From: Symbiobacterium thermophilum IAM 14863
GTDB lineage: Bacteria > Bacillota > Sulfobacillia > Symbiobacteriales > Symbiobacteriaceae
Assembly: GCF_000009905.1 (NCBI RefSeq)
Contig: NC_006177.1
Coordinates: 2,666,001-2,730,000 of the forward strand
DNA: 64,000 nucleotides
Direction of reading: 5' to 3'
Under the pieces are notes generated by a model. That model was not told the DNA's origin, did not search any database, and saw nothing but the letters and a program-made list of their open reading frames with translations. Position 1 is the stretch's first letter; each line of letters opens with the position of its first letter. This document shows positions 22,626 to 43,673 of the stretch, piece by piece. The position numbers and the translations under genes were made by a program.

Positions 22626-22650
22626 GCAGACAGTCCACTGCTGCGCACGC

Positions 22651-22752
22651 TTCATCTCTCGGACCGAGTGTCCGCTGGATTTGGCACCGTTCTCCCCGCG
22701 GGAGAGGTTGCCGTGGCATCATGGGGCCAGTCCCTCCGCCACTCTCGATGAA
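22651..22752 (-). promoter_or_regulatory. SAM-I (S-box) riboswitch
   Basis: The minus-strand leader has the S-box landmarks in order: closing helix P1 (TTCATC at 22752-22747 pairing GATGAA at 22656-22651), CGAGAG, GGCGGAGGGACTGGCCC with GATG, the conserved CCACGGCAACC, then GGTGCCAAATCCAGC. High S-adenosylmethionine should stabilise P1 and allow the downstream terminator to form, shutting off metF, the activation protein, metH and the reactivase. Confidence 0.93.
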
Positions 22753-22780
22753 CCGGGCGGGTATTCAGTTGTTTGGGGAC

Positions 22781-37624: not shown

Positions 37625-38656
37625 CTATCCACTGGAGAGCCGCCGTTCGAGCCGCTGCGCCCACCGACGGTAGTTCGCCGCCTCTGCCTCGATCGCATCG
37701 CACAGATGCCGCTGGTCATCCAGGCTGTGTCTGATCGGAACGTTGTGCCGCCGCAGCAGGCTGCTGATGGTCCCGAAGCTCAGGTCATCCGCTCTGACTT
37801 CGATGAGGGTGATCCCGTGGGTCTCGCTGAACCTGCGTTTGATGTCATCGCGCATCCTCTGCTCCTGCAGTTGCGTGTCTGAAGGATAACGCTGCGTGGT
37901 TCGGTAATGCTGGGGCCCCTGAAACTCCAGGGCAACCCGGGACACAGGGAGGAGCAGGTCGTAGTGCAGCTGCCCTCCGGTGAACGGGTTGACCAGCCGC
38001 AACACCTCGCCGTTCTCAATGAGGAGCTGGTCGACGACCAACACCGCGACGATGCACTTCAGCAAGTATTGGCCTACGGAGTACCGCTCCTTCAACCTGG
38101 CGAGGCGCAGCCCTTCGTAGAAATCCTGCACGTCCGCATGCCGGTTTTCGTCGATGATGTTCACCGTCTCGAAGCGGTAGACCTTGCACCGCCCTGCGCG
38201 GACCACCTCACCAACAAGCCAGCCGTAATGGCTGAGGATCCGCACGTACTTCCTCAGGCTGATCCGGGAGCACCGCATCACGTGCTGGAGTTGGGCGTAA
38301 TCGAACTCACCCACCCCCCGGATGTGCGCCCACAGCCACTTTGCCCCGTGGGGGATGCGCCGGTCCAGCACGAGGTCCACGGGGATGGTAAACGCGCGCG
38401 TGCCGCGCCACAGGGCGCAGCACTCGAACTCGCGCGTGCCCAAGGAGTCCAGCTGAATCCACCGAAGGGCATCCAGCGCGCGCATGTGCTGCTTCAGACG
38501 GTACTGCGACAGCCCCGTAACGCGCCGCAGTTCGGCCCATGTCAGGCGCGTCTTCTGCTTTCGGATCGCCCGCAGGTAGCACCAGAGCACCCGGGCACTG
38601 TCCGTCAGCTCCCCGTCATCCAGGAGTTGGTGCGGGACGGCGACCTCCGTGAGCAT
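37625..38656 (-). CDS. Double helix-turn-helix protein with Vsr/DUF559-like nuclease domain
   Basis: 343 residues. Two winged-helix-like segments are visible (LTWAELRRVTGLSQYRLKQHMRAL at ~38-61; FDYAQLQHVMRCSRISLRKYVRIL at ~118-141). The C-terminal third (~228-300) has the pattern of PD-(D/E)XK endonucleases of the Vsr/DUF559 group: HYDLLLP (D233), VALEFQGPQHY (E244, Q246, H250), RMRDDIKRRF (D270, K273) and HGITLIEV. Combined DNA-binding and nuclease folds suggest a sequence-directed DNA-cutting or -binding protein; function unknown. ATG 38656 has GAGGTG nine bases upstream. It abuts the 250-bp repeat array and lacks other partners. Confidence 0.65.
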   Translation of the reverse strand: MLTEVAVPHQLLDDGELTDSARVLWCYLRAIRKQKTRLTWAELRRVTGLSQYRLKQHMRALDALRWIQLDSLGTREFECCALWRGTRAFTIPVDLVLDRRIPHGAKWLWAHIRGVGEFDYAQLQHVMRCSRISLRKYVRILSHYGWLVGEVVRAGRCKVYRFETVNIIDENRHADVQDFYEGLRLARLKERYSVGQYLLKCIVAVLVVDQLLIENGEVLRLVNPFTGGQLHYDLLLPVSRVALEFQGPQHYRTTQRYPSDTQLQEQRMRDDIKRRFSETHGITLIEVRADDLSFGTISSLLRRHNVPIRHSLDDQRHLCDAIEAEAANYRRWAQRLERRLSSG

Positions 38657-38754
38657 GGCAGGCATCACCTCGGGAAAGCGCGGTTCACTCTATGATCAGA
38701 TTCTTGCAACTTCCAATAATTTCCTTCTCCCCGAAGCCGGCCAGGACCACGAAT

Positions 38755-40126
38755 GTGTACTTCCCCCAAACCCGCATGCCACAAGCCTTCCCCCGTCTGC
38801 GAGCCCCGTATGCCGGCTACCGCCCGGGTCAGTGAAACGAGTGTGCACTCTCCCGAAGCCCGCATCCCACAAGCCCTTCCCGGCTCGCAGGCCCCAAAAT
38901 CTCGCATGGTGCCGGGCTTCCGCGGAAGTGCACGTTCATGTCAACGTCAGCGTCACTGGCTCGCACTTCACCTGCAGACGATCTCACCACCGATCCCCGC
39001 CGGCGCCATCGCCCTTCCACAGCACCTCCGACGTCCTCCACCGCTCCCGCTGTTGCGGCCACCACGTACCGCCAACCGTCAGTGAAACGAATGTGCACTT
39101 TCCTGAAGCCCGCATCCCACACGCCTTTCCGGATCTGCAGACCCCAGACCCTGCATGGTGCCGGGCTTCCGCGAAAGTGCACATTCATGTCAACGTCAGC
39201 GTCACTGGCTCGCACTTCACCTGCAGACGATCTCACCACCGATCCCCGTCGGCGCCATCGCCCTCCCCGAGCGCCTCCGACGTCCTCCACCGCTCCTGCT
39301 GTTGCGGCCACCACGTACCGCCAACCACCGGTGTAACGAGTGTGCACTTTCCTGAAGCCCGCATCCCACAAGCCCTTCCCGGCTCGCAGGCCCCAAAATC
39401 TCGCATGGTGCCGGGCTTCCGCGGAAGTGCACGTTCATGTCAACGTCAGCGTCACTGGCTCGCACTTCACCTGCAGACGATCTCACCACCGATCCCCGCC
39501 GGCGCCATCGCCCTTCCACAGCACCTCCGACGTCCTCCACCGCTCCCGCGGGTCAAGCTCACCACGTGCCGCAGACCGCCAGTGAAACGAATGTGCACAT
39601 TCCTGAAACCCGCATCCCACAAGCCGTTCCCGGCTCGCCGACCCCCGATCCCGCATGGCGCCGGGCTTCCGCGGAAGTGCACATTCATGTCAACGTCAGC
39701 GTCACTGGCTCGCACTTCACCTGCAGACGATCTCACCACCGATCCCCGCCGGCGCCACCACCCTTCCACAGCGCCTCCCACATCCTCCACCACTCCCGCG
39801 GGTCAAGCTCACCACGTGCCGCAGACCGCCAGTGAAACGAATGTGCACATTCCTGAAACCCGCATCCCACAAGCCGTTTCCGGCTCGCCGACCCCAGATC
39901 CCGCATGGCGCCTGGCTTTCGCCCAAGTGCACGTTCGTGACAGCATCGACGTCACTTGGTCCCTCCAAGTACCCGAAAGACTTCCTCCACCGTCCCCTGA
40001 TCGCAGCTACCTCGTGCCGCCAACCGCCCGCGTCACGAATCTGCACTTCTCCCAAGCCCGCAACCCCAAACACGCCACGAATCGCCAGCCCTGCGGCCCG
40101 CATCCCCGGCGTTCACGAAAGTGCAC
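38755..40126. repeat. Array of 250-bp tandem repeats, each with an inverted GTGCAC pair
   Basis: The 1.6-kb stretch 38657-40277 has no credible gene. A motif like GAATGTGCACTTTC..GAAGCCCG (A) has its GTGCAC at 38843, 39093, 39342, 39593 and 39843, with a degenerate CTGCAC copy at 40041 and a GTGTAC copy at 38755. Its inverted partner CGGGCTTCCGCGGAAGTGCAC (B) has GTGCAC at 38928, 39177, 39427, 39677, 39927 and 40121. Spacing A-A and B-B is 249-251 bp in the core; A to B is 80-85 bp, so each unit can form a ~100-base hairpin. The ~165 bp between pairs are also highly conserved. The period is mostly not a multiple of three and open frames exist in every phase, so coding is unlikely. The last unit is shortened and diverged. 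Confidence 0.9.
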
Positions 40127-40228
40127 ATCGACCCCCAACGCCAACCTCGCCCGGTGGTTCGGGCCCGCGGGCCAGTGCCAGAGCCCCAAGAAGGAGAAAG
40201 GCCCGCCCGGGATCCCTTCTCCGGCACA

Positions 40229-41108: not shown

Positions 41109-41338
41109 GTTGTCCTCCTCATCCTTTGTCTGGCGGATACGGCCTCATTCCCACCCCGCATGGGCTGGGACCCCAGGCAATCTTACCCGATAGTGTCTCC
41201 CCCCGACGGTGACGCAGGTCACCATGCGGAGCCTCACCACCGTCCCGCCCCGCCGGCCACCCCAGCGCCGCCGCAAGCCCTCACGCTGAACCGGTCGCGG
41301 GGCTCGGGACGGCGTGTGCGGCGTCTTCCCTGCTCCAC

Positions 41339-41612
41339 CCCTGCTCCACCCCTGCTCCCGCCCGGCTCCCACTCGGCTCCTGCACGGCTCATCCCCAGCT
41401 CCTGCCTGGCTCCTGCACGGCTCATCCCCGGCTCCTACTCGGCTCCCACTCGGCTCCTGCTCGGTTCCTGCACGGCTCATCCCCAGCCCCTGCCTGGCTC
41501 CTGCACGGCTCATCCCCAGCTCCTGCCTGGCTCCTGCACGGCTCATCCCCGGCTCCTGCTCGGCTCCTGCACGGCTCATCCCCCGGTCATCCCCGGCTCC
41601 TGCTACGCTCGT
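41339..41612. repeat. Minisatellite of 11-bp units in 33-bp higher order
   Basis: The gene-free stretch 41109-41711 contains TGCACGGCTCATCCCC at 41381, 41414, 41469, 41502, 41535 and 41568: intervals of 33, 55, 33, 33 and 33 bp, all multiples of 11. The filler is made of related 11-mers (GGCTCCTGCNC). Apparent proteins over it (on either strand) consist only of the 11-residue repeat and have no supported start. I see no other feature in this gap. Confidence 0.88.
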
Positions 41613-43170: not shown

Positions 43171-43268
43171 GGGTGCAACAGCGTGGGTGCCACAGAGCGG
43201 GTGCAACAGCGCAGGTACAACAGCGCGGGTGCAACAGCGCAGGTACAACAGCGCGGGTGCACCAGCGT
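43171..43268. repeat. 14-bp tandem repeats
   Basis: Seven units with starts at 43171, 43185, 43199, 43213, 43227, 43241 and 43255, alternating GGGTGCAACAGCGC and AGGTACAACAGCGC types. They lie in the 740-bp gene-free gap 43072-43813. Confidence 0.85.
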
Positions 43269-43592
43269 TGCTGCCGAACGAGGTCGCGCGCTCCGGCCCT
43301 GCGCCACCCGGATGCCGCCTCTTCCGTACGCACCGCACGCACGGGCTGATCCGGGGCTCCCGCTAGGCTCGGGGGGCCCCGACATCAACCCGGGGACCGG
43401 GCGAAACCGACGGCCGGCGGCCCCGCCCAATTGCTCAGCGACAGTTCCGACGTAAAGCTACGTTTCCGCGCGAGGGCCCCGGGCACCTCCCGTCCTGGAA
43501 GGTCGCATTCCCGTCACCATGCGCGCCGGCAGCTCGCCTACGCCCGGGCCCAGGCTGCAGCCACAGCCGCACGTTTATCCCCAGACGGCCCT

Positions 43593-43673
43593 GGGAACGG
43601 GGCGACTCCTGATGGTCCCGGGAACGGGGCGACGCCCGATGGCCCCGGGAACGGGGCGACGCCCGACAGCCGT
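43593..43673. repeat. 27-bp tandem repeats
   Basis: Three units starting at 43593, 43620 and 43647 with the core GGGAACGGGGCGACGCCCGA, the second and third nearly identical. They are in the same gap as the 14-bp array; the rest of that gap shows no gene. Confidence 0.8.

What the first reader, a model, noticed from the sequence alone, without database searches (positions are those of the whole stretch)
38755..40126. Array of precise 250-bp tandem repeats carrying alternating inverted GTGCAC motifs
Seen directly: A motif (GAATGTGCACTTTC..GAAGCCCG) at GTGCAC positions 38843, 39093, 39342, 39593, 39843 and its inverted partner at 38928, 39177, 39427, 39677, 39927, 40121. The period is 249-251 bp and the A-B distance 80-85 bp, so every unit can fold a ~100-base imperfect hairpin. 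The whole 250-bp unit is conserved, not only the motif, and frames shift between units, arguing against coding. Degenerate copies flank the core (38755, 40041). This is not CRISPR, rRNA spacer or a known IS. It could be an ncRNA array, a protein-binding locus, a plasmid/phage partition-like site, or an amplified mobile unit. Function is not known.
Basis: partly seen in the sequence, partly recalled or inferred. Interest (0 to 1): 0.8.

Follow-up and report, generated by a model that had tools for sequence, protein, structure and literature searches.

The report
Nuclease gene with private repeat arrays
The repeat array is one of a scattered family of rigidly built DNA elements that goes with the nuclease-like gene beside it, and related Symbiobacterium genes each carry their own differently worded array, which suggests a previously undescribed kind of repeat-and-nuclease system.

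Summary
The array is real: five full units, period 249-251 bp, two inverted GTGCAC motifs 84-85 bp apart, with a degenerate half-unit and unit at the ends. It is not a lone curiosity. The same ~116-bp dyad element occurs at 7 loci in this 3.57-Mb genome and at about 12 in a second Symbiobacterium, with the 84-bp spacing almost invariant although spacers and interiors diverge. It is absent from a third species. Symmetric positions show no compensatory covariation, so a protein-binding DNA element fits better than an RNA hairpin.

The neighbouring 347-aa gene supplies the likely partner. It encodes two winged-helix domains plus a Vsr/I-Bth0305I-type (EDxHD) nuclease domain. Twelve of 18 Symbiobacterium paralogs examined have a long-period tandem array 98-363 bp upstream, mostly with clear inverted arms. 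Each ortholog group has its own motif and fixed arm gap; three ortholog pairs share motif and gap. Two other motifs were predicted to be dispersed, and both were, only in the genome holding their gene. Where the window gene is missing, its arrays are missing too.

Best reading: a repeat-nuclease module, working like REP/RAYT but built from unrelated parts. Association is shown; binding, cleavage and array spread are inferred.

The parts
37625..38668 (-). 347-aa protein: two tandem winged-helix domains (about residues 10-75 and 95-160) and a C-terminal Vsr/I-Bth0305I-like (EDxHD) nuclease domain (about 195-311); proposed partner of the array
38743..38768 (+). orphan degenerate motif (GTGTAC at 38755), gene-proximal edge of the array
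38830..38945 (.). element 1: motif A (38843) and inverted motif B (38928), 85 bp
39080..39194 (.). element 2 (39093/39177, 84 bp)
39329..39444 (.). element 3 (39342/39427, 85 bp)
39580..39694 (.). element 4 (39593/39677, 84 bp)
39830..39944 (.). element 5 (39843/39927, 84 bp)
40028..40138 (.). degenerate element 6 (40041/40121, 80 bp)

Best explanation
The array and the 347-aa gene next to it form one repeat-nuclease module. The protein's two winged-helix domains, probably as a dimer or pair of dimers, recognise the two-fold symmetric element (two GAANGTGCACNTTC palindromes 84 bp, about eight helical turns, apart). The Vsr/I-Bth0305I-type nuclease domain then nicks or cuts at or near such elements, and repair amplifies units in tandem and seeds new arrays elsewhere. 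The other GTGCAC arrays in the genome are non-autonomous daughters of this gene-linked array. Each paralog runs the same scheme with its own motif. Shown here: the gene-array linkage, private motifs, rigid geometry, dispersal, and joint absence. Inferred: binding, cleavage, and cleavage-driven spread. Sub-confidences: module real and protein recognises its own element about 0.8; nuclease-driven amplification and dispersal about 0.45.
For: 12 of 18 Symbiobacterium paralogs have a tandem array of period 75-250 bp whose near edge lies 98-363 bp upstream of the start. Background is one such array in 156 kb of the same genomes, binomial p about 6e-24 (background sample small and chosen by me). Three ortholog pairs keep motif and arm gap while the period changes: window/L078 (74 bp; 250 vs 241), L147/L170 (19 bp; 86 vs 126), L157/L169 (12 bp; 116 vs 115, L157's array lying 1.3 kb upstream). 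Predicted dispersal was confirmed twice: the L161 motif at 4 loci of G001 only, all pairs 28 bp apart; the L158 motif 94 times in G000 (11 clusters plus 3 single sites), reversed-pattern control 0, near chance elsewhere. GTGCAC arrays occur in G000 and G002, which have the window gene, and are absent from G001, whose locus lacks both gene and array. Nuclease: phage homing endonucleases by sequence, model matches Vsr Z 9.1 and I-Bth0305I Z 8.4 over 92 of its 97 residues. D237, E248, G251, Q253, H254, K277 invariant in 24 homologs.
Against: No binding or cutting was measured. Loci without arrays contain no leftover motif, so simple homing into pre-existing sites is not seen, and no clean target duplication was evident by eye. 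In the window's protein clade the 'GE' of the other clade and phage relatives reads 'GQ', possibly altering catalysis. Six of the 18 paralogs lack an immediately upstream array (one is 1.3 kb away, one has only a 37-bp repeat, two have under 1 kb of upstream sequence). Homologs in the related genus and families (G003, G004, G007 and others) have none by TRF. Inverted arms were not resolved in every array (L156, L164).
Confidence: 0.58

Rival explanations
1. The protein is essentially a winged-helix regulator: arrays are operator clusters that autoregulate its gene and control a dispersed regulon; the nuclease fold is inert or incidental.
For: Arrays sit just upstream of the genes; wHTH domains are the clearest known DNA-binding part; GQ in place of GE in the window clade.
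Against: By a GC-frame gene call, at least two arrays (L038, L077) lie between convergent genes rather than in promoters, and no gene type recurs beside daughter arrays. Putative active-site residues D237, H254 and K277 are invariant across paralogs. A regulator does not by itself explain tandem growth and copy-number change.
Confidence: 0.2
2. The elements are MITE-like or satellite repeats moved by an unrelated transposase or grown by replication slippage; the nuclease genes merely sit near them.
For: Array copy number varies (window 6 vs G002 2; L038 4 full vs 1) and orthologous loci can be empty.
Against: Linkage to 12 of 18 paralogs, private motifs shared by orthologs, joint absence in G001. 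No IS carrying the motif turned up among the genome-wide motif hits, which all fall in arrays.
Confidence: 0.08
3. A self-marking or addiction/defence system in which the nuclease attacks DNA bearing or lacking the element.
For: Nuclease with private sites; Vsr/EDxHD fold.
Against: No convincing PADLOC match (only weak HTH hits) and no partner gene seen in the window neighbourhood.
Confidence: 0.07
4. Structured ncRNA array or chromosome-organising (centromere-like) sites.
For: Single units fold well (z -4.8 to -5.5); rigid spacing suits a large nucleoprotein complex.
Against: Within-element pairing equals cross-array pairing (motif 0.872 vs 0.866; inner 0.447 vs 0.456; centre 0.501 vs 0.472; a few single positions are higher); patchy species distribution; no Rfam match.
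Confidence: 0.07

Closest known systems
REP/BIME repeats with REP-associated tyrosine transposases (RAYTs), REPINs (PMC2817692, PMC3116915)
   Same: An enzyme gene sits beside its own repeat; alternating inverted repeats dispersed in intergenic DNA; different paralogs own different repeats; orthologs stay in place with their repeats.
   Different: Enzyme is wHTH plus Vsr/EDxHD nuclease, not a Y1 HUH transposase; repeats have no GTAG tag, form tandem arrays of 75-250 bp period on the upstream side, and the window element is a ~116-bp dyad with strict spacing.
EDxHD homing endonucleases (I-Bth0305I, phage Twort-type intron endonucleases)
   Same: Homologous nuclease domain. I-Bth0305I is described as dimerising on a target of nearly 60 bp (PMC3943268), about one half of the window element (my comparison).
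   Different: Free-standing gene with tandem repeat array; no intron or intein seen; homing not demonstrated; two tandem wHTH domains for binding.
Vsr mismatch endonuclease
   Same: Nuclease fold (1cw0, Z 9.1).
   Different: Has N-terminal wHTH domains and arrays; association with a cytosine methylase was not looked for.
MITEs such as Correia or RUP elements (from memory)
   Same: ~100-bp elements with inverted repeats, non-autonomous.
   Different: Organised in homogenised tandem arrays, with exact internal length kept across diverged copies; no TSD seen.

Membership tests
REP/RAYT | Y1 (HUH) transposase gene associated with the repeat | tested here: not met
   Pfam scan of the window protein and 24 homologs: only HTH families plus single weak hits, no transposase; nuclease domain is Vsr/EDxHD
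REP/RAYT | 20-40 bp palindromic repeat with GTAG-type tag | tested here: not met
   116-bp dyad; conserved positions show no such tag
REP/RAYT | Repeat of the gene dispersed through the genome in alternating orientation | tested here: met
EDxHD homing endonuclease | EDxHD/Vsr-type catalytic domain | tested here: met
   phrog_9084 E 9e-14; invariant D237/E248/G251/Q253/H254/D274 with 37 viral relatives; 3r3p Z 8.4. First E is Q in the window protein
EDxHD homing endonuclease | Cleaves an empty allele and copies itself in | tested here: inconclusive
   Empty loci in G001 and G000 hold no motif; cleavage not testable
CRISPR array | Short direct repeats with unique spacers, cas genes | tested here: not met
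   250-bp units with conserved spacers; no cas-type domain in the flanking genes scanned
Structured ncRNA | Compensatory base changes or a known family | tested here: not met
MITE | Terminal inverted repeats plus target-site duplication | tested here: inconclusive
   Inverted motifs present; no clean TSD in empty-site comparison by eye

The most novel reading that the evidence does not exclude
A new class of bacterial repeat-nuclease system: winged-helix/EDxHD nucleases that each own, amplify and spread a private satellite-like tandem array, with specificity diverging from paralog to paralog.
Probability: 0.5. Interest if true: 0.85.

Novelty: categorically new. Interest (0 to 1): 0.75.

Why it matters
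It would show that bacteria have satellite-like arrays driven by dedicated nucleases unrelated to RAYT transposases. It gives a ready set of paralogous DNA-binding nucleases whose targets can be read from the genome, so how such proteins change specificity becomes testable. It also explains a set of intergenic repeats that break short-read assemblies of these genomes.

Tried and rejected
RNA hairpin reading: single units fold well, but the cross-array control removes the signal. Rfam: only a SAM riboswitch elsewhere. Plasmid, phage and viral collections for the element: nothing convincing. Common neighbour genes of daughter arrays: none. Literature: nothing found linking EDxHD/Vsr-like nucleases with tandem arrays in the held library; the S. 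thermophilum genome paper is not held. Sequence search of PDB for the nuclease domain gave no useful hit; the fold comparison did. Foldseek alone gave no match at E below 0.001.

Full report
What is there. The array has five full units of 249-251 bp and degenerate ends. Each unit holds two copies of one motif, consensus RTTGGNACGAATGTGCACTTTCNNNAAGYCC, facing each other, 84-85 bp centre to centre.

It is a family. Motif searches found the same paired element in this genome at about 132, 497, 640-643, 1911, 2294, 2647 and 2705 kb, and in one of two other genomes of the genus (G002), not in G001 or 38 further relatives. In 48 elements the centre distance is 84 bp in nearly all, while spacers run from 91 to 170 bp. 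In the genome-contig scan all matches to a pattern that allowed 81-101 bp were exactly 96 bp long.

DNA element rather than RNA. The element is two-fold symmetric over about 116 bp with discontinuous conserved bases. Pairing between arms of one element equals pairing between arms taken from different arrays (0.872 vs 0.866 in the motif, 0.447 vs 0.456 inside, 0.501 vs 0.472 near the centre), so the symmetry is in the sequence consensus and not kept by compensatory change. A few single positions do pair better within elements. 84 bp is 8.0 turns at 10.5 bp per turn (inference).

History. Four arrays sit at orthologous loci in G000 and G002 with flanks mostly 77-91% identical but spacers not alignable; two further G000 arrays correspond to a single element (L038) or a half element (L039) in G002. 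Within one array low-information positions are 0.81 identical, between arrays about 0.46, high-information positions 0.85-0.92: homogenisation within arrays plus constraint on the element. In G001 three of these loci have no array, and at the window locus the 347-aa gene is missing too.

The gene. The 347-aa protein has 7 copies here, 6 in G001 and 7 in G002. Alignment shows two tandem winged-helix units and a C-terminal domain with invariant N227, D237, E248, G251, Q253, H254, K277. That domain resembles phage homing endonucleases. The AlphaFold2 model is confident there (pLDDT above 90 over most of 230-310) and weak over the wHTH part; its best structural matches are Vsr (Z 9.1) and I-Bth0305I (Z 8.4, 92 residues). 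The next unrelated chain also scores 8.4 at a much worse rmsd (5.1), so the assignment rests on fold and sequence together.

Gene and array go together. In Symbiobacterium 12 of 18 paralogs have a long-period tandem array with its near edge 98-363 bp upstream, against one such array in 156 kb of comparison sequence. Orthologs share motif and arm gap, other paralogs differ: window and L078, gap 74; L147 and L170, gap 19; L157 and L169, gap 12 (L157's array is 1.3 kb upstream and is not among the twelve). Inverted arms with fixed gap were verified in L017, L078, L147, L170, L158, L161, L159, L166 and L157/L169; in L156 and L164 they were not resolved, and in L162 only short arms were seen.

Predictions tested. 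If a paralog spreads its own repeat, its motif should be dispersed only in its own genome. The L161 motif is at four loci of G001, every pair 28 bp start to start, and at chance level in G000, G002 and G004. The L158 motif has 94 sites in G000, with no match to the reversed control there, and near-chance counts in the other three genomes. Both predictions held.

Mechanism. Recognition of the element by its own protein is the simplest reading. Cutting followed by repair would explain tandem growth, homogenisation and spread, but empty loci contain no motif and show no clean duplication, so how new arrays are seeded is open. A pure regulator is the main rival. The system works like REP/RAYT repeats in logic (PMC2817692) but fails that family's defining tests.

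Limits. The 84-bp pattern and the paralog counts come from three related genomes, one of them an incomplete MAG. The background sample for the linkage statistic is small and chosen by me. Expected database coverage is partial: the original genome paper could not be read. Novelty is rated on the absence of a described nuclease-plus-private-array system in what could be searched, and on failed membership tests.

Noticed in passing
window 22649-22754 (-): SAM riboswitch (RF00162, 95 bits).
   Followed up: no
window 41328-41603, 43171-43267, 43587-43666: Short-period GC-rich tandem repeats (11/33/66/88, 14/28 and 27 bp) close to the array; a different kind of repeat.
   Followed up: no
L016:4560-6280: An insertion-sequence-like element (ends near AGCTCAAGTTTC, long transposase-like frame, not classified) interrupts the GTGCAC array at 640-643 kb.
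   Followed up: no
upstream leaders of L147, L156, L158, L161: GGAA-rich, partly palindromic stretches (GGAAATTCC, GGAATTACCTTCC, GGAATCAATTCC) between array and start codon; possibly a shared promoter or control site.
   Followed up: no
protein alignment A1, about residue 200 of the window protein: One clade (with the window protein) reads SxGQ where the other clade and phage relatives read GE, a possible change in the nuclease active site.
   Followed up: partly
L154:2766-3058: A 37-bp tandem repeat (7.9 copies), without clear inverted arms, upstream of another paralog.
   Followed up: no
L039: In the array at 132 kb successive elements appear to alternate in orientation, unlike the other arrays (weak orientation scores).
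   Followed up: no
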